A stretch of 6,653 nucleotides of DNA. It comes from Treponema sp. (GTDB lineage Bacteria; Spirochaetota; Spirochaetia; Treponematales; Breznakiellaceae). Location: contig JAITQR010000034.1 of assembly GCA_031288815.1 (NCBI GenBank), forward strand, positions 1-6,653. Direction: 5' to 3'. The position numbers were made by a program, and so were the translations under genes. The first letter of the stretch is position 1; every line of letters starts with the position of its first letter. The notes under the pieces are model-generated. The model searched no databases, was not told the DNA's origin, and saw nothing but the letters and a program-made list of their open reading frames with translations. Shown in pieces: positions 254 to 6,653 of the stretch.

Positions 254-259
254 CTGACA

Positions 260-264
260 CCTCT
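260..264 (-). promoter_or_regulatory. Ribosome binding site of the RlpA-like gene
   Basis: On the minus strand AGAGG lies six bases before the ATG at 251-253, within AAGAGGTG. It fixes this start and sits only about 10 bases downstream of the end of the structured repeat at 274-350, so folding of that repeat could affect access to it. Confidence 0.7.
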
Positions 265-273
265 TTTCAATTA

Positions 274-350
274 ATCAACATACCTCACCCTTCAGGGCCG
301 AGGTATATTGTTCTCCCATGGTGGTTAAACTCAAGATTTAACACCTTAAG
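274..350 (-). repeat. Structured intergenic repeat, left copy (RNA-like, ends in a hairpin)
   Basis: Read on the minus strand, this 77-base stretch matches the plus-strand copy at 6455-6529. The first 43 bases agree at 37 positions, with five of the six differences being transitions. The last 13 bases, GAGGTATGTTGAT, are identical. Homology stops abruptly after GTTGAT. The core contains TAACCACCATGGGAGAAC. It is followed by a hairpin at 281-301: stem CCTC/GAGG, a G-U pair, a bulged G, CCC/GGG and loop TGAA. The closing G-U pair would be a C-A mismatch if the other strand were the RNA. The copy lies in the predicted leader of the RlpA-like gene and in the same orientation. It could be a transposon end or omega-RNA-like remnant, or a genomic structured RNA; no tnpA or tnpB is present. 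Confidence 0.8.
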
Positions 351-364
351 AACGCCCTAAAACT

Positions 365-400
365 CCCCCGCGCAAGCGGGCTCTTGGGTATTAAACCCTT
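365..400. repeat. REP-like palindromic element (two adjacent hairpins)
   Basis: Two small hairpins sit side by side. The first is CCCGC (367-371) pairing with GCGGG (376-380) around GCAA. The second is GGGT/ACCC around ATTAA in GGGTATTAAACCC (386-398). On the minus strand this reads as a GAAGGGTTTAATACCC block followed by a GC-rich stem with a TTGC loop. I recall that layout from dispersed REP-type elements in many bacteria, but I cannot check how many copies this genome has. The 13 bases GGTATTAAACCCT (387-399) recur exactly inside the right repeat at 6460-6472. Confidence 0.55.
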
Positions 401-425
401 CGCTACGAATAAATATATGGATCTG

Positions 426-454
426 AGTATACACCATTGAGACGCGAAAATCAA
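426..454 (-). promoter_or_regulatory. Sigma70-type promoter for the RlpA-like gene
   Basis: On the minus strand a -35 box TTGATT (449-454) and a -10 box TATACT (426-431) are separated by exactly 17 bases. Each box is one base from consensus. Transcription would start near position 419 and run toward the RlpA-like gene at 253, leaving a leader of about 165 bases. That leader would contain the REP-like hairpins and the structured repeat. This is the best promoter in the window, judged by eye only. Confidence 0.65.
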
Positions 455-457
455 GGT

Positions 458-531
458 TTCCGGGCCTTTTTCAGTGTTTTGCCCGGAAGATACCCCTGAC
501 AGGGACAATTCACAAGGCCCGGAATCCCGGG
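458..531 (-). terminator. Possible transcription end of the mutS unit: two hairpins after the stop codon
   Basis: Downstream of the mutS stop on the minus strand there are two stems. CCCGG/CCGGG with a 4-base loop spans 518-531. An 8-bp stem TTCCGGGC/GCCCGGAA with a 15-base loop spans 458-488. The second is followed a few bases later by GATTTT, a weak T-run, and abuts the -35 box of the next promoter. Neither is a textbook rho-independent terminator, because the T-run is short and displaced. A smaller CCCT/AGGG stem lies at 494-504. Confidence 0.35.
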
Positions 532-543
532 TGTATGAAACCC

Positions 544-3198
544 TCAATACGAATCAAACAGGCTGGGGTTTTCGGGATCCGCCGGGTTTTTTTTGCTTTT
601 CACGGATCCGCAATTTTTTTCGGTGTTTAACAGATTTTTCCACTTTTGTAGTTTTTGCAGAGCCGCCATGGGGGTTATATTGTCCGGATCCAGGGCGTTT
701 ATTTCCTCAAGAAGGCGGCGAAGGTTCGCCGGAACGGAATTTTCCCCGGTGGGCGCGGGTTTGGGGGAAGGCGCAAGGGCAAGTCCCCTGTCCCGCTCCT
801 CAAGCTGTTCCATGATGCCGGCGGCCCTGTCCAGAACTTCCCGGGACAGGCCCGCCAGACGGGCCACGTGGAGCCCGTAGGATTCCGCCGCCGGGCCTTC
901 TTTTATGCGCCGGAGGAAAACTATCTCCCCATCCCGGTTCAGGACTTCCATGGAACGGTTCGCCATGCGGGGATGGGAAAGCAGGGAAAGCTCATGGTAA
1001 TGGGTGGCGAAAAGGGTACGGCACCGAACCTGGTTCAGGAGTTCTTCGCATACCGCCCAGGCGATGGACAGACCGTCCTTCGTTCCGGTTCCCCGGCCCA
1101 CCTCGTCCATAATGACCAGGCTCATATCGGTGGCGGTGTTGAGGATATAGGCGGTCTCGTTCATTTCCGTGAGGAAAGTGGATTCCCCCCGGGCAAGATT
1201 GTCCGAAGCCCCTACCCGGCAGTAGATCCTGTCCGTAAGCCCGATCCGGGCTTCCCGGGCGGGGACGAAGCTTCCCATCTGGGCCATAAGGGTGATCAGC
1301 GCCGCGGCGCGCAGGTAGGTGGACTTTCCGGCCATATTTGGCCCGGTGATCAGGGCGAAAGAAACATCCCTCTCCAGAATAATGTCGTTAGGGATAAACT
1401 CTCCGGCCGGCAGATGGGCCTCCACCACAGGATGCCTGCCTTCCAGGATAACGAGCTCCTTCCCGTTGTTTATCGAGGGCCGTACCCAGTTGTGGATGGT
1501 GGAGGCCCGGGCCAGGGACTGGGCCGCGTCGAGTTCCGCGAGCCTGGCGGCGGCGGCGGCCAGATCCCGGAGATTCTCCTTTACCTTCTCCCGAATTTCC
1601 AGGAAAAGCCTCTTTTCCAGTTCGATGATCTTATCCGAAGCCCCGTTAATATCCGATTCCAGGCCGGCCAGCCGGTCGGTACTGAAACGCTCGCCGGCGA
1701 CAATCCCCTGGCGCCGGATAAAATGGGGAGGAACCTTAGAGAGATGCGCCTTGGTTACCTCGAAGAAGTAGCCGATAAGCCGGTTGTAACGGATCTTGAG
1801 GCTCGATATCCCCGTATTTTCCCGCTCCTCCTCCAGGTAGCCCTCCAGGAGCTGCCTGCCGTTGTCCTGAAGCCGGCGGAGCTCGTCCAGTTCGGCGTTG
1901 TAGCCCTGGCGAATAAGGTTTCCTTCGGTGAGCAGTATAGACGGATCCTCGCAGAGCCCCCTCGCCAGGAGATCCCGAATCGCCGTCAGGGCGGAAAGAT
2001 CCGTTCCGGACAGAAGCCGCGCGTCCGGGGACTCAAAGGAGACCGAAAGCGGTCTTACCAGTTCCTCCACCCTCTCCAGGGAATCCAGGGCGTTCCTTAC
2101 CGCCGTCATGTCCTTGCCGTGGGCCTTGTCCATGGCGATGCGGGAACTTAAACGTTCCAGATCCGGGGTTTTCCCCAGAAGCTCCCGCAGGACGCCCAGG
2201 GACGGCTGATCCCGGTAGAAAGCCTCCACCATGTCCAGCCGGGCGCTAATAGCGGCGGCGTCCCGCAGGGGGCGGAGGATCCGCCGTTTGAGGAGCCGCC
2301 GGCCCATGGCGGTACGGGTTTCGTCCGTCACCTCCAGGAGGGAAAAGCGGGATTCCCCGTCCCGCAGGCAGCGGATAAGCTCCAGGTTCCGCTGGGAAGA
2401 TTCGTCTATCCCCACGTACTCCCTGTCCCGGTAGACAGTGATGGTATGGACATGGGGAATAAGGATCCTGGCGGTGTCGTCCAGATAGTCCAGAAGCGCG
2501 CCGGCGGAAAGGATCTCCGGGCTGTCATCCTCCAGGCCGAAGCCTTTAAGGCCGGCCGTTTTGAACTGCCGGAGAAGCCGCTGCCTGCCCCTTTCCTGAT
2601 CAAAAAGCCAGTCCGCCCAGCGGTTCACCACCAGATCGGGCCGATCAAGAACAGCCCGGGCTATCTTGCCGTCCTCCTCGAGCAGGGATTCCTGCAGGAT
2701 CAACTCTTTTATCTGGAGCCGTTCCAACTCCTGCCTGAGCCTTTCCGCGGCCCCTTCGCGGGAAAAACTGGTGGCGTGGAAATCTCCGGCGGAAAGGTCG
2801 ATATAGGCGAAGGAGAGACGCCGCCAAAGAGGCCCCCCAAAGGCGGCGAGACAGGCCAGGTAGTTGGAGCTTCCCTTATCCAGGAAATCCTCGTCCACGG
2901 CGGTGCCGGGGGTGATTACCTCCACCACCCTCCGTTCGATAAGGCCCTTGCCCGGCTCGGCAAACTGTTCACAGACGGCTACTTTCTTCCCGTATTTGAG
3001 GAGCCGGGCAATATAAGACCGAGCCGCGTGGTAGGGAATACCGCACATGGGCTGGCTGTTACGGCTGGTAAGGGTGAGATTCAACAGGGCGGATACTTCC
3101 AGGGCATCGTCGGCAAACATCTCGTAGAAATCGCCCAAACGGAAGAAAAGAACTTCTCCCTGATGATCCCGCTTTATCCGCCTGTATTGATCGAGCAT
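544..3198 (-). CDS. mutS: DNA mismatch repair protein MutS
   Basis: Recognises base mismatches and small loops in newly copied DNA and, with MutL, starts their repair in the cytoplasm. The protein has 884 residues as drawn, normal for bacterial MutS. Domain I opens with G-D-F-Y-E (22-26), where F24 and E26 are the mismatch-contacting pair (F36 and E38 in E. coli). Connector, lever and clamp domains follow to about 560. The ATPase has Walker A G-P-N-M-A-G-K-S-T (619-627), signature E-S-T-F-L-T-E-M (672-679), Walker B I-M-D-E (696-699, with G-R-G-T-G-T after it instead of the usual G-R-G-T-S-T) and A-T-H-Y-H-E-L (731-737). A C-terminal oligomerisation helix (834-858) precedes a tail ending P-S-L-F-D-S-Y, a plausible beta-clamp binding motif. 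The ATG at 3196-3198 has no good ribosome site, and homology to E. coli begins before it, so the true start may lie slightly upstream. No mutL is adjacent. Confidence 0.97.
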   Translation of the reverse strand: MLDQYRRIKRDHQGEVLFFRLGDFYEMFADDALEVSALLNLTLTSRNSQPMCGIPYHAARSYIARLLKYGKKVAVCEQFAEPGKGLIERRVVEVITPGTAVDEDFLDKGSSNYLACLAAFGGPLWRRLSFAYIDLSAGDFHATSFSREGAAERLRQELERLQIKELILQESLLEEDGKIARAVLDRPDLVVNRWADWLFDQERGRQRLLRQFKTAGLKGFGLEDDSPEILSAGALLDYLDDTARILIPHVHTITVYRDREYVGIDESSQRNLELIRCLRDGESRFSLLEVTDETRTAMGRRLLKRRILRPLRDAAAISARLDMVEAFYRDQPSLGVLRELLGKTPDLERLSSRIAMDKAHGKDMTAVRNALDSLERVEELVRPLSVSFESPDARLLSGTDLSALTAIRDLLARGLCEDPSILLTEGNLIRQGYNAELDELRRLQDNGRQLLEGYLEEERENTGISSLKIRYNRLIGYFFEVTKAHLSKVPPHFIRRQGIVAGERFSTDRLAGLESDINGASDKIIELEKRLFLEIREKVKENLRDLAAAAARLAELDAAQSLARASTIHNWVRPSINNGKELVILEGRHPVVEAHLPAGEFIPNDIILERDVSFALITGPNMAGKSTYLRAAALITLMAQMGSFVPAREARIGLTDRIYCRVGASDNLARGESTFLTEMNETAYILNTATDMSLVIMDEVGRGTGTKDGLSIAWAVCEELLNQVRCRTLFATHYHELSLLSHPRMANRSMEVLNRDGEIVFLRRIKEGPAAESYGLHVARLAGLSREVLDRAAGIMEQLEERDRGLALAPSPKPAPTGENSVPANLRRLLEEINALDPDNITPMAALQKLQKWKNLLNTEKNCGSVKSKKNPADPENPSLFDSY

Positions 3199-3219
3199 TG
3201 GTGACGAAGCGCCTTGATT

Positions 3220-3233
3220 CGTAAACCCCCTCC
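3220..3233 (-). promoter_or_regulatory. Strong ribosome binding site upstream of the annotated mutS start, facing an ACG codon
   Basis: On the minus strand GGAGG (3229-3233) is followed after six bases by ACG (3220-3222), in frame with mutS. Between that ACG and the ATG at 3198 the frame encodes N-Q-G-A-S-S-P. The S-S-P-M-L-D-Q-Y stretch lines up with T-P-M-M-Q-Q-Y of E. coli MutS. No ATG, GTG or TTG occurs in frame between the ATG at 3198 and the upstream stop at 3289-3291. The ribosome site therefore appears positioned for a start that now reads ACG, or initiates rarely at ACG. Confidence 0.5.
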
Positions 3234-3262
3234 ACGGAAGATATGTCCCTAATATTGGGCTT

Positions 3263-3286
3263 GTTCGGAAACCCCGGTTTCCGAAC
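3263..3286. repeat. Perfect 11-bp inverted repeat between ompH and mutS
   Basis: GTTCGGAAACC (3263-3273) and GGTTTCCGAAC (3276-3286) are exact reverse complements separated by CC. As RNA this makes a hairpin of about 10 bp on either strand. No T-run follows on the minus strand, so a classical terminator is unlikely. An operator, a processing site or a dispersed palindromic element fits better. Confidence 0.75.
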
Positions 3287-3291
3287 CTCTA

Positions 3292-3330
3292 TCGCCTCCG
3301 CCGGGTCTGTGCGCCCGAACACGGCGGCGA
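3292..3330. repeat. Imperfect GC-rich hairpin between ompH and mutS
   Basis: TCGCC (3292-3296) and GCCG (3300-3303), split by a 3-base bulge, pair with CGGCGGCGA (3322-3330), giving nine base pairs around an 18-base loop. It lies five bases from the perfect inverted repeat at 3263-3286. Together they fill much of the 175-base gap after ompH and could slow or stop transcription before mutS. The rest of this gap shows no other clear signal. Confidence 0.5.
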
Positions 3331-3373
3331 TTGAGTCTTTTCCAAAATCCGACAGTTTGAAAAGCCCCGATCC

Positions 3374-3904
3374 TTAACGGCCCGCCTTGGACACCAAATT
3401 TTGAATTAGTTTATCGGTAATATCCACCGTTGGACTGTACCAGAGGATACCGGTATTTTCTTTAAGGTTCAGCACCATACTGTAGCCCTCGCTTTCGGCG
3501 ATAAAACGGATCTCGTCGTAAACCTGTTCCAGAAAGGCCCCGGATTGGGTAAGCCTTTTCTTTTGGGCTTCAAGCTCCTGGGTTTTAAGCTGGTAATACT
3601 CTTTAAGGAGTTCGCTTTTCCGGTAGATCTCGTTTTCCAGCCGAAGGGACTGCTGCTGATTCCCCTGGAACTCCGCGTTGATCTGCCGGTTTTTAAGATC
3701 GTTTATCTCCCGGGTCATCCGGTCTACCTCGTTCTGAACCTGGGCGCTTCTCTCCTCAAAATCACGAACCGCCCGGGAATCGCGGAAAAAAGACACATAG
3801 ACCCGGGACAGATCCACCACGGCAAAGCGGGTAAGCTGCTGGGCCGGAAGAAAGCCGGCAAAGACGGTACACAGGAAAATCGCGCATATCACCATTTTTT
3901 TCAT
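3374..3904 (-). CDS. skp: OmpH/Skp-family periplasmic chaperone
   Basis: Periplasmic holdase that grips unfolded outer-membrane proteins after Sec export and delivers them to the BAM machine. The protein has 176 residues, typical for the family. Residues 1-21 are a signal peptide: M-K-K-M, a hydrophobic core, and F-L-P-A with cleavage probably just before Q22-Q23. The mature start F-A-V-V-D-L-S-R-V-Y (27-36) is the usual first beta-strand of Skp. Residues about 45-135 are highly charged and glutamine-rich without proline, the long coiled-coil arms of the jellyfish-like trimer. The C-terminal part returns to strand and helix (Y-S-M-V-L-N, then T-D-K-L-I-Q-N-L). The ATG at 3902-3904 is nine bases after the bamA stop. 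Its ribosome site AAGGGG overlaps that stop codon, suggesting coupled translation with bamA, its functional partner. Family assignment rests on architecture and context because Skp sequence conservation is low. Confidence 0.93.
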   Translation of the reverse strand: MKKMVICAIFLCTVFAGFLPAQQLTRFAVVDLSRVYVSFFRDSRAVRDFEERSAQVQNEVDRMTREINDLKNRQINAEFQGNQQQSLRLENEIYRKSELLKEYYQLKTQELEAQKKRLTQSGAFLEQVYDEIRFIAESEGYSMVLNLKENTGILWYSPTVDITDKLIQNLVSKAGR

Positions 3905-3913
3905 GGCTTCCCC

Positions 3914-6385
3914 TTAATACGAAGAAAGGGCAAAGGACAGCACAAAGTCAAGCCCGCCTACACCCCCCTTCTCCCAGTTCAGATCCCCGTCTATCGTGCG
4001 GAAACGTTTGGCGAAACCGAAGCGGAAGGGGAATTGGGGAATGGTAAAACGTATGCCCCCGCCTAAACTGTAACGCATATCATCCATCGAGAACTCCTTA
4101 AACAAGGCGTTGGGCGTCGACTTTACCGCCGCGGCGTCGAGGAAGAAATCCCAGGCCAGTACGCCGGGCACGATGGGGAAGCGCAGTTCCGCCCAGTTTT
4201 CCCAGAGAACGAGCCCTTTGTTCCGGTACTCCCCCGTCCAGCCCCGGCCGTAGAACATCCCGTCAATGGCGAGCTGGTTGGCCAGTTCGGCGTGTACCAT
4301 GTCCTGACCCGGCTGGGGCAGCATGAAGGAGATCCCCGTATGGAGGCCGCCGATGATCTTGAAGGAGTATTTTTCGGTTAGGGGGATATTGAGCAGGGTA
4401 TGGAAATACTCGGCCCTGGTATCGGTCCTGATGAATTTTTCAGGCTCCATCGGCAGTATCCCGTATATGCCGAAACGCTGAACCCCGTAGTAACCCCGGG
4501 TAGGATCGTAGTAAATGTCCCGCTGATCCAGGGAGAGGGAAGTCCATACCGAATTCGCCGGAATCGGCGCGTTGTTGTTTCCCCGGATGGTAGGATCAAA
4601 GGGACGGTAAAGATTCGAGTCGTAGGTGTTGATCTTGAAACCGGTTCGTATTCCGCCGCCAAGCCCCAAATTTCCCAGGAAGGTAGACCAGCGGTAGCCG
4701 GTGGAAAAACCGACGGAAATGTACCACTGCTGGTACCGCATCAGATACGCGCTGGGGGGAATCTTCGCGGCGTCCTCGTATTCCCCGTAAGAGCCGAACC
4801 CGTCGGGAAAGGCCCAAGCCTCATCGCCGTTGAAGAAAGGAGCGGTATTATTCATCGCCGTAAGCCGCTCGGTATGGGAAAGGGTAAAGTCGAATCCGCC
4901 GGAAAGGGGAAGGCCGAAAATCCAGCGGTGGGTGTAATTAACGGAAAGGCTTTGGGTGTCGGGAGAAGCGTTGAGCTCCGCGCCCAGACTGTTTCCCGAT
5001 CCCCGCAGATTGCGGTCGTTCCATTTGACCATCCCGGAAACCGGAAAGGCCTCGGGGTCCGAGGTGCCGGAAAAGGTAAGCCCAAACTGAACGTCCGTGG
5101 TAGGCTGCTCCTCCACGTTGAAGATCAGTTCCATCAGGTTGTCGGCACTGCCGAAGGGGGTATCCGGGGCTACCATGGAGAAGTACTGCAGGTTGTACAG
5201 GTTCCGCATACCGTCCATAACCTTTGTCTTGGAGAACACGTCACCCGGCTCCAGAGGGATCTCCCGCAGGATAACATCGGTCTTTGTCTTGGTATTGCCC
5301 CGGACAGTGATGCTTTCTATATGGGCCCGGCCCCGTTCCACGATGGAGATCCGGTAGAAGACCGTCCCGGTTTCCCGGTTTTTCTCTTCATCCCGGCCGA
5401 TGGTGTTGAAGATGTAGCCGTTTTCATAATACAGATCCGCCACCCGCTGCAGATCCGCCTCCAGCCGGCGGGCGTTGGCCGTCGTCCCCGGCTTGGAATA
5501 GATCAGCTTGGCAAGCTGTTCGGTGGGGAAAATATGGTTCCCCTCAAAAGAGACTCCCCCAAAGGTAAAGAGGCTCCCCTCATTAACCCGGAAGGTGATA
5601 ATCATGTTGTTACCGCCATTCGCGTCCCTGACGATCTCCTGGGTTACGTCGCTTACCTCGGCCTCAATATAGCCCCGGTCATGGTAATACTGCACCAGGG
5701 CCTGGCGATCGGCGGCCAGTTTCGCGTCCTGGAAAGCGCCGTCCCTGATAAGGTTTTTCGTCTTCAGGGTAAGCTGTCCCCGCAGGGTTCGATCCGAAAA
5801 AACGGAATTCCCCTGAAAACGGAATTCCCTGATGCTGAGTTTTTCCCCTTCGGTAATATGAAAGAGAACGGTATAGCTGCCGTCCCTGGCCGCCTGAATT
5901 TCGGAGCTGACCGTTACATCGGGGTAACCTTTTTCCAGGTACTTGCCGATCAGTGCCTGTTCGTCAATCCGGATCTTCATCTGGTTTACCACGTCGTTGA
6001 CTTTCAGGGTAATCACATCCAAGAGCTCGCTTCTGCGGATATGGCTGTTTCCCACAAAGGTTATCCTGGCCGCCACCGGCTGCTCCACGACATCGAAGCG
6101 GACAATGACTTCCCTGTTCTCCGGATCCGCGGGAATCGCCGTGGGTTCGATCTTGCTGAAGTATTCCAGGGCGTAGAGCCGGCCCTGGATTTCCAGAAAA
6201 AGTTCGTCACTGAAGGGCTTCCCGATGAAAGGGGCCACGATCCCCTCCAGATCCGTGGCCTTAACATGCTTAAGACCTCTGAAAACGATATCTTTTACCG
6301 GTTTTCCCTGGTACCATTCGCCTTCCTGGGAAAAAACCGGGAAAACGACCATGACAAAAAAGAGAAGTCCAAAACACCGACGCAT
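3914..6385 (-). CDS. bamA: BamA, outer-membrane beta-barrel assembly protein
   Basis: Central insertase of the BAM complex, folding and inserting beta-barrel proteins into the outer membrane. The protein has 823 residues, close to the family norm. A signal peptide covers 1-19 (ending V-F-S, then Q20-E-G). Five POTRA domains follow at about 30-102, 106-180, 183-270, 272-351 and 354-427; four of them open with a strand ending G-N (F-V-G-N, F-Q-G-N, F-E-G-N, V-R-G-N). The barrel fills about 430-823, with alternating aromatic strands. The loop-6 motif usually written V/I-R-G-F/Y appears as Y-G-R-G-W (712-716). The last strand ends S-F-A-L-S-S-Y, so the terminal aromatic is tyrosine. A long polar loop near 506-550 is probably surface exposed. 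The start is ATG 6383-6385 with AGGAG five bases upstream. The gene lies between tamB and ompH, the arrangement I recall from T. pallidum, where the BamA orthologue is TP0326. Confidence 0.97.
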   Translation of the reverse strand: MRRCFGLLFFVMVVFPVFSQEGEWYQGKPVKDIVFRGLKHVKATDLEGIVAPFIGKPFSDELFLEIQGRLYALEYFSKIEPTAIPADPENREVIVRFDVVEQPVAARITFVGNSHIRRSELLDVITLKVNDVVNQMKIRIDEQALIGKYLEKGYPDVTVSSEIQAARDGSYTVLFHITEGEKLSIREFRFQGNSVFSDRTLRGQLTLKTKNLIRDGAFQDAKLAADRQALVQYYHDRGYIEAEVSDVTQEIVRDANGGNNMIITFRVNEGSLFTFGGVSFEGNHIFPTEQLAKLIYSKPGTTANARRLEADLQRVADLYYENGYIFNTIGRDEEKNRETGTVFYRISIVERGRAHIESITVRGNTKTKTDVILREIPLEPGDVFSKTKVMDGMRNLYNLQYFSMVAPDTPFGSADNLMELIFNVEEQPTTDVQFGLTFSGTSDPEAFPVSGMVKWNDRNLRGSGNSLGAELNASPDTQSLSVNYTHRWIFGLPLSGGFDFTLSHTERLTAMNNTAPFFNGDEAWAFPDGFGSYGEYEDAAKIPPSAYLMRYQQWYISVGFSTGYRWSTFLGNLGLGGGIRTGFKINTYDSNLYRPFDPTIRGNNNAPIPANSVWTSLSLDQRDIYYDPTRGYYGVQRFGIYGILPMEPEKFIRTDTRAEYFHTLLNIPLTEKYSFKIIGGLHTGISFMLPQPGQDMVHAELANQLAIDGMFYGRGWTGEYRNKGLVLWENWAELRFPIVPGVLAWDFFLDAAAVKSTPNALFKEFSMDDMRYSLGGGIRFTIPQFPFRFGFAKRFRTIDGDLNWEKGGVGGLDFVLSFALSSY

Positions 6386-6390
6386 TAAAA

Positions 6391-6395
6391 CTCCT
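6391..6395 (-). promoter_or_regulatory. Ribosome binding site of bamA
   Basis: On the minus strand AGGAG lies five bases before the ATG at 6383-6385. This supports that start and a signal peptide beginning M-R-R. Confidence 0.8.
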
Positions 6396-6423
6396 AAAGA
6401 ACGATTCTCCCCCTAAAGGGCGG

Positions 6424-6453
6424 GATATGGCCGTTCCGCAAGGTATGAATCAA
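6424..6453 (-). promoter_or_regulatory. Weak candidate promoter for bamA
   Basis: TTGATT (6448-6453) and CATATC (6424-6429) on the minus strand are 18 bases apart and point to bamA. The -10 box is poor. The bases overlap conserved-looking parts of the opposite-strand repeat, so the match may be chance; readthrough from tamB is an equally good explanation. Confidence 0.25.
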
Positions 6454-6454
6454 C

Positions 6455-6529
6455 CATAAGGTATTAAACCCTGAGTCTAACCACCACGGGAGAACAACAA
6501 CCTCGTTCTTCAGGGCGAGGTATGTTGAT
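6455..6529 (+). repeat. Structured intergenic repeat, right copy (RNA-like, ends in a hairpin)
   Basis: Inverted relative to the copy at 274-350 and antisense to the tamB-bamA transcript. It holds CCCTGAGTCTAACCACCACG, then GGGAGAACAACAA and a terminal hairpin at 6501-6520. In that hairpin CCTCGTTC pairs with GGGCGAGG around TTCA, using two U-G pairs that would be C-A mismatches on the other strand. Homology ends at GTTGAT (6524-6529). Just upstream on the same strand are two more small stems: CCC/GGG around TAAA (6411-6420) and CGGGA/TTCCG (6421-6438). ATCAAC at 6449-6454 can pair with the terminal GTTGAT and enclose the unit. The structured unit may therefore span about 6411-6529, but the left copy has no counterpart to the upstream stems. 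Confidence 0.8.
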
Positions 6530-6558
6530 CCCGAAAACCCCGCTCGAACCGAGGCTTC

Positions 6559-6583
6559 GCGGCCCGATAACCGGGATTTCCGC
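6559..6583 (-). terminator. Hairpin after tamB, possible transcription attenuator
   Basis: On the minus strand GCGG, a four-base bulge AAAT, CCCG, loop GTTAT, CGGG and CCGC form an eight-pair stem 24 bases after the tamB stop. No clear T-run follows directly; GGGGTTTT comes about 20 bases later. It may stabilise the tamB 3-prime end or reduce readthrough into bamA. Confidence 0.35.
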
Positions 6584-6606
6584 AAGCGCGACAGGCCGCC
6601 GGGCCT

Positions 6607-6653
6607 TTAAAACACCCAATCCCAGCTTATGGTGAAGGAATTATCGCTAATAT
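6607..6653 (-). CDS. C-terminal end of a TamB-like translocation/assembly protein (cut by window edge)
   Basis: Only the last 14 complete codons and the TAA stop (6607-6609) are inside the window. They read I-S-D-N-S-F-T-I-S-W-D-W-V-F. This is an amphipathic beta-strand of alternating hydrophobic and polar residues ending in phenylalanine, as expected for the C-terminus of TamB (DUF490 family) and of outer-membrane barrel proteins. TamB is a long periplasm-spanning protein implicated in outer-membrane protein assembly and lipid transport, and it commonly neighbours bamA, including in treponemes as I recall. Assignment depends on position, strand and this short strand. Another beta-barrel protein is possible. 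Confidence 0.6.
   Translation of the reverse strand, partial: ISDNSFTISWDWVF

What the first reader, a model, noticed from the sequence alone, without database searches (positions are those of the whole stretch)
274..6529. Pair of structured repeats in inverted orientation flanking the bamA-ompH-mutS block, with base changes that preserve RNA pairing in one orientation only
Copies at 274-350 (minus) and 6455-6529 (plus) share 37 of 43 bases in the core and an identical 13-base end. Their terminal hairpins have different loops (TGAA and TTCA) and different inner stems. Both still fold if G-U pairs are allowed in the element's own orientation, whereas the complement would have C-A mismatches. 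That asymmetry suggests selection on an RNA, or a recent RNA-based origin. No protein gene in the window explains it. The copies are about 6.1 kb apart and could mediate inversion of the segment between them.
Basis: partly seen in the sequence, partly recalled or inferred. Interest (0 to 1): 0.7.

Follow-up and report, generated by a model that had tools for sequence, protein, structure and literature searches.

The report
Transposase-less hairpin elements in treponemes
The two repeats are separate copies of a short mobile DNA element, about 120 bases long and too small to hold a transposase gene, that has spread through many treponeme genomes and looks like a stripped-down relative of a known class of single-stranded-DNA transposons.

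Summary
A covariance model built without the window copies finds A at 273-410 (-), full length, and B at 6429-6530 (+), whose 5' part is decayed. They are two members of a dispersed element matched in 116 of 195 genomes of the nearest relative's family and 40 of 392 sampled across its phylum. The element is too short for a transposase, has two top-strand hairpins with strong covariation and usually follows TT[T/G/C]. Its left end resembles DNA 18-39 nt before IS200-type Y1 transposase genes in 19 of 24 testable genes; its right end resembles DNA at the stop codon in 8 of 23, three very weakly. Best reading: a non-autonomous IS200-type element (PATE/MITE). Hairpins needed on one DNA strand explain the G-U asymmetry without an RNA. 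B is absent from a relative with 90% identical BamA. No relative seen shows the block inverted. Against: the helper is unidentified; the element is not positively associated with Y1 genes, and one single-contig genome has nine near-identical copies but no Y1 hit. A new family of a known kind.

The parts
273..410 (-). Copy A, full-length element (ATTCGT...GTTGATT, 138 nt), inserted after TTT in ...CCATATATTT
   Evidence: R2 model 74.1 bits, E 3.5e-14; boundary by comparison with the family
326..406 (-). Copy A left-end composite hairpin (approximate ends): P1 (tip with interior), P2 (GGGTTTAATACC with GGTGTTAAATC), inner hairpin with an AAGAGCCCGC..GCGGGGGAG extension
276..310 (-). Copy A right-end hairpin (CAATATACCTCGGCCCTGAAGGGTGAGGTATGTTG)
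6429..6530 (+). Copy B; 6457-6529 well preserved, 6429-6456 decayed, with broken pairs in P1 and P2
   Evidence: R2 model 41.9 bits, E 4.1e-7, broken pairs marked in the printed alignment
6495..6527 (+). Copy B right-end hairpin (CAACAACCTCGTTCTTCAGGGCGAGGTATGTTG)
6386..6606 (.). 221-nt tamB-bamA spacer that holds copy B; the spacer is 41 nt in L001

Best explanation
A and B are two independent insertions of a non-autonomous IS200/IS605-type element (a PATE, or IS200-derived MITE): a left-end and a right-end hairpin with no transposase gene. Inferred mechanism: when the top strand is single-stranded, mainly as lagging-strand template, the two hairpins form. A Y1 HUH transposase of IS200 type supplied in trans nicks after TT[T/G/C]AT at the left and after the element's own TTGAT at the right, excises it as single-stranded DNA and inserts it after another TTNAT. 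Shown here: multicopy dispersal, hairpins with covariation, target preference, end similarity to IS200-type transposase loci of the same bacterial family, absence of B in a relative. Inferred: action in trans, the nick positions, the identity of the helper.
For: Matches in 116 of 195 family genomes and 23, 31, 12, 41, 13 and 13 in six genomes at E <= 0.001. Nine copies in G141 at unrelated sites, eight letter-identical over 117 nt and the ninth over 116. Left-end profile hits 18-39 nt before the tnpA start in 19 of 24 testable genes (E <= 0.05, best 1.6e-10 in 70 kb); in 1.2 Mb of G141/G143 pieces only four hits exceed 13 bits against 27 in the 70 kb. Right-end profile hits at the stop codon in 8 of 23, best E 3.4e-5. 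The transposase is IS200 type: NF033573 133.7 bits, cut-off 55; PDB relatives include the ISHp608 transposase 2a6m. At 46 sites T stands at -3 in 41 and at -2 in 43; TT[T/G/C] in 38. Tandem GTTGAT/TCGTG junctions. Covariation score 0.227 v 0.081 in shuffles and at most 0.055 when slid. Top strand on the lagging template in 77 of 121 copies of five genomes, two-sided p 0.0035. No element in the L001 spacer.
Against: The element is not positively associated with Y1 genes: any PF01797 (E <= 0.001) in 62 of 116 element-bearing v 57 of 79 other genomes (odds ratio 0.44, p 0.011); the matching tnpA subgroup in 21 of 116 v 20 of 79 (p 0.28). G141 has no PF01797 match. No tnpA bracketed by exactly this element's ends was seen; P1 and part of the interior have no counterpart that I recognised in the autonomous ends. 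15 of 23 right ends gave no hit, and three of the eight that did have E 0.7, 6.4 and 8.1. 21 of the 40 printed left-end hits lie elsewhere in these loci, so such hairpins are common there. Strand bias is not significant in any one genome (24/41, 8/13, 8/13, 16/23, 21/31); copies and tandem pairs are not independent, and gene orientation could confound it. A hand count of the pattern hits gave 8 of 15 in G143 (no bias) and 15 of 18 in G141, one near the terminus left out.
Confidence: 0.85

Rival explanations
1. A structured RNA gene or cis-acting RNA family, the RNA being what selection acts on.
For: Strong covariation, including a tip helix with three standard pair types at two of its four pairs; G-U over A-C 29 v 9 cells; copy A lies 19 nt upstream of the start codon of the ORF at 2-253, on the same strand.
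Against: No Rfam match to the element in the window; the two matches listed lie elsewhere and far below their gathering scores. Copies sit at unrelated sites, some letter-identical, B is missing in a close relative, there is a target preference, and the ends resemble those of IS200-type loci.
Confidence: 0.06
2. omegaRNA or guide-RNA remnant of a TnpB or IscB element.
For: General look of the 3' end (GGGAGAACAAC, then a hairpin), from memory only. One very weak R1 match (E 5.2) lies just after a TnpB gene in L143.
Against: TnpB (PF07282, E <= 0.001) in 7 of 116 element-bearing v 17 of 79 other genomes; IscB-type RRXRR in 2 of 195 at E <= 0.001 and 0 over the cut-off, in a search whose control genomes rang nowhere; no Rfam HEARO match in the window or in seven loci.
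Confidence: 0.03
3. REP/BIME-like repeats spread by a REP-type tyrosine transposase (RAYT) rather than an IS200-type TnpA.
For: Y1 proteins outside the IS200-like subgroup occur in these genomes; G143 has three PF01797 matches but none to the subgroup. REPs too are hairpins processed as ssDNA (PMC6006769 passages).
Against: Two different ends and a target preference, as in IS elements; the ends resemble loci of a gene that scores 133.7 bits as IS200 (cut-off 55) and 27.3 as REP transposase (cut-off 80).
Confidence: 0.06

Closest known systems
PATEs (palindrome-associated transposable elements) of Haloquadratum walsbyi, PMC3119063
   Same: Short, without transposase, near-terminal palindromes like those of IS605-type transposons, no target duplication, multicopy; small elements insert into them (passages read)
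   Different: Bacterial lineage; one family with a covarying composite left end shared across many genomes
IS200/IS605 insertion sequences (IS608, ISDra2)
   Same: LE and RE hairpins, target beside LE (TT[T/G/C]AT) resembling the RE end (TTGAT), modest lagging-template bias, ends similar to local IS200-type tnpA loci
   Different: No tnpA or tnpB inside
REP/BIME and REPIN elements with TnpA-REP (RAYT)
   Same: Dispersed hairpins linked to Y1 HUH enzymes
   Different: REPs are 21-65 nt (PMC6006769); here two different hairpins in about 118 nt
TnpB omegaRNA / IscB HEARO RNA
   Same: Superficial look of the 3' end (memory)
   Different: No Rfam match, no linked TnpB or IscB seen

Membership tests
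PATE / IS200-derived MITE | Near-terminal palindromes similar to those of IS200/IS605-type transposons | tested here: met
   Left end 19 of 24 genes; right end 8 of 23, weaker
PATE / IS200-derived MITE | Too short to encode a transposase | tested here: met
   41 distinct copies of 110-150 nt, picked by their end motifs
PATE / IS200-derived MITE | No target duplication | tested here: met
   46 sites, 3 nt of slack at each end: longest end repeat at most 4 nt in 39, 5-7 nt in 7; no fixed length. No exact empty site was available
PATE / IS200-derived MITE | Multicopy and mobile | tested here: met
   Letter-identical dispersed copies; no element in the L001 spacer
PATE / IS200-derived MITE | Mobilised in trans by an IS200-type TnpA | not testable with these tools
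   No experiment; genome-level association is absent or negative
IS200/IS605 insertion sequence | Encodes tnpA (Y1) and/or tnpB | tested here: not met
   Copies of 110-150 nt hold no such gene; works like one, is not an autonomous member
IS200/IS605 mechanism | Preference for the lagging-strand template | tested here: inconclusive
   77 of 121 pooled, p 0.0035; none of five genomes significant alone; confounders open
TnpB/IscB omegaRNA | Linked TnpB or IscB, or Rfam HEARO match | tested here: not met
   the IscB search had no ringing control
REP/REPIN | Hairpin with 5' guide tetranucleotide, beside a RAYT gene | not tested
   RAYT neighbourhoods were not examined

The most novel reading that the evidence does not exclude
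A mobile element spread over a wide lineage of spirochaetes whose covarying structure, including the tip helix P1 beside a conserved GA/GA pair, is kept by selection for a second role as RNA or by a helper other than a known Y1 enzyme, so that it has spread in genomes such as G141 that hold no recognisable Y1 transposase.
Probability: 0.12. Interest if true: 0.6.

Novelty: new member of a known kind. Interest (0 to 1): 0.35.

Why it matters
It identifies a repeat family of termite-gut and other treponemes for which I found no report, shows that one-strand wobble asymmetry in a repeat can signal ssDNA transposition rather than RNA, and gives nearly identical copies and a covarying end structure with which helper use and end recognition of IS200-type enzymes can be tested. 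It also warns against calling such repeats regulatory RNAs.

Tried and rejected
omegaRNA, HEARO and TnpB origin was tested and set aside: in six genomes PF01385 0 of 6, PF14239 0 of 6, PF07282 1 of 6 at E <= 0.001 and 0 over the cut-off; family-wide searches; R1 over 60 transposase loci gave nine matches, none better than E 0.58, four of them just after a Y1 or TnpB gene (L127, L116, L112, L143). Plasmid and phage records gave one 28-base match in Rhizobium (E 0.3) and none. Block inversion. Alignment A3 was wrong, nine of its 20 rows being taken on the wrong strand or at wrong coordinates; it was discarded for A4. A DnaA motif search in five pieces of G141 and G143 found nothing, so origin and terminus come from GC skew of 20 to 32 sampled 20-kb pieces per genome and are rough. 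Papers: no report of this element showed in the listings for Treponema azotonutricium, repeat, transpos; termite, Treponema, insertion sequence, MITE; Treponema denticola, IS200; Treponema primitia, repetitive element, palindromic, transposase, MITE (any two terms, 10 of 3,331 listed); Treponema, extragenic palindromic, IS200, non-autonomous. Only listings were seen for these, and the library is open-access papers only. Listings served for background; passages were read of three papers.
Full report
What was checked. The window carries, on the minus strand, an ORF at 2-253 (no Pfam match), mutS (544-3198), ompH/skp (3374-3904) and bamA (3914-6385), and the end of a tamB-like gene at 6607-6653, so named from its match to the L001 gene (name recalled). 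The repeat pair is real. Covariance model R2, built from 21 copies outside the window, finds A at 273-410 (-), 74.1 bits, E 3.5e-14, and B at 6429-6530 (+), 41.9 bits, E 4.1e-7, with the left part of B decayed; a third, weaker hit is the right end of B read on the other strand (unfiltered).

Family. A 72-base query from B gave 77 blast matches in G001 (the genome of L001, whose BamA is 90% identical), 14 in G006, 2 each in G002 and G005, 3 in G003 and none in G004 at E <= 10; many are pieces or the reverse strand of one copy. Model R1 (17 sequences, both window copies included) matched 116 of 195 genomes of the family at E <= 0.01, 40 of 392 genomes drawn from the phylum at E <= 1e-4, and 23, 31, 12, 41, 13 and 13 places in G141, G143, G214, G548, G359 and G340 at E <= 0.001, the weakest of them partial. 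By recall only, the lengths of G141, G143 and G359 fit Treponema azotonutricium ZAS-9, T. primitia ZAS-2 and T. denticola ATCC 35405; no call names them. In G141 nine copies lie at unrelated places, eight identical over 117 nt and the ninth over 116.

Anatomy. Typical copies read ATTCGTG, a variable pair of bases, GAGGGGTTTAATACC, an inner hairpin, GGTATTAAACCCCGA, a variable stretch, a linker with GAGAACAAC, a right hairpin and TGTTGATT. Helices: P1 pairs the left tip with the interior; P2 is GGGGTTTAATACC with GGTATTAAACCCC; P3 lies inside P2; P4 is the right hairpin. On A4 (21 sequences, none from the window) 96.4% of cells pair against 88.7% in shuffles, 12 pairs change on both sides against 6.9, and the covariation score is 0.227 against 0.081 (0 of 500 shuffles) and at most 0.055 when slid. 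At its outermost varying pairs P1 shows U-A, C-G and G-C. A2, which includes the window copies, agrees. These controls do not remove relatedness of the copies. In an alignment of 42 sequences (41 copies plus A; B left out) G-U cells number 29 and A-C cells 9; as distinct states 15 and 6, p 0.078.

Mobility and target. At 46 distinct sites of copies picked by ATTCGT and GTTGAT ends, T stands at -3 in 41 and at -2 in 43, and -1 is T, G or C in 45; TT[T/G/C] precedes 38. Copies sit in tandem at GTTGAT/TCGTG junctions. No direct repeat of fixed length flanks them. The tamB-bamA spacer is 221 nt in the window and 41 nt in L001; L001 to L007 have no element match at E <= 1. Without copy B the window spacer is still about 80 nt longer than that of L001, so L001 shows absence but not the exact nick. 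Copy A could not be tested this way: none of the seven loci matched the ORF at 2-253.

Relation to IS200. Left-end and right-end profiles made from copies outside the window (those of ordinary length) were searched against 30 loci with matches to one Y1 transposase (41 of 195 genomes at E <= 1e-12, fragments and distant matches included; only the 30 fetched loci were used). The left-end profile hits on the gene's strand, 18-39 nt before the start, in 19 of 24 testable genes (E <= 0.05, best 1.6e-10); 21 of the 40 printed hits lie elsewhere. In 1.2 Mb of G141 and G143 pieces, which hold real copies too, four hits exceed 13 bits; in the 70 kb of these loci 27 do. The right-end profile hits at the stop codon in 8 of 23, three of them at E 0.7, 6.4 and 8.1. 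The protein is IS200 type. In G001, the nearest genome, such a gene is followed by CTCGGGCAAACATACC..GGTAGTTGATC, close to the element's right part.

Mechanism. PMC6006769 (passages) states that IS200/IS605 enzymes bind subterminal hairpins of ssDNA, read a target tetranucleotide beside LE and the end of RE through guide sequences, and act on the lagging-strand template. The element fits: hairpins kept on one strand, TT[T/G/C]AT beside the left end, TTGAT at the right end. In five genomes the top strand is on the lagging template in 77 of 121 copies, p 0.0035; singly 24/41, 8/13, 8/13, 16/23 and 21/31, none significant. In G141 the near-identical class is 8 of 9, p 0.039. Origins and termini were fitted to GC skew only, tandem pairs are counted twice, gene orientation was not controlled. 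A hand count of the pattern gave 8 of 15 for G143 and 15 of 18 for G141. An IS605 survey in Halanaerobium saw no strand preference, 10 of 22 on the leading strand (PMC7290912 passages), so the bias is not universal.

Against this reading. Genomes with the element have Y1 genes less often, not more: 62 of 116 against 57 of 79; the matching subgroup 21 of 116 against 20 of 79 (lists copied). G141, a single contig, has no PF01797 match at E <= 0.001. Many of these genomes are fragmented, with copies at contig ends, which can hide transposons, and helpers can be lost after spread; in Haloquadratum strain-specific insertions are seen although all IS200-type transposons of one strain are pseudogenes (PMC3119063 passages). 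Both are explanations after the fact.

Known kind. PATEs are described in PMC3119063 as transposase-free elements without terminal inverted repeats or target duplication, with near-terminal palindromes related to those of IS605-type transposons; one PATE-like sequence was reported in Halanaerobium. The element meets the features I could test. No paper on it showed in my searches.

Verdict. Two separate insertions of a new PATE-like family; an RNA gene pair or an inversion switch is not supported. Interest is moderate: an ordinary mechanism, a sizeable family, and an open helper question.

Noticed in passing
window 3263-3286: Perfect palindrome GTTCGGAAACCCCGGTTTCCGAAC between ompH and mutS; the pattern GTTCNGAAACNNNNGTTTCNGAAC occurs in 9 of 342 loci (L116 and L196 are the same place), so perhaps a second dispersed palindrome.
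   Followed up: partly
L035 285-299 and 368-382, L042 444-458 and others: A 15-nt hairpin GAACCGCAGGTTCGA is nested in hairpin loops of copies in G001, in both hairpins of one copy; 20 of 342 loci hold it (several loci overlap).
   Followed up: partly
L031, L048 and L068 (same place as L037): Another small hairpin insert, TCGGACTTGCTCCGCAAGTCCG-like, interrupts the 5' arm of P2 in some G001 copies.
   Followed up: no
window 455-527: Imperfect inverted repeat (23-nt arms, 27 nt between them) just after mutS, perhaps its terminator.
   Followed up: no
window 254-272: Copy A ends 19 nt before the start codon of the ORF at 2-253, same strand, so it may form part of that gene's leader.
   Followed up: no
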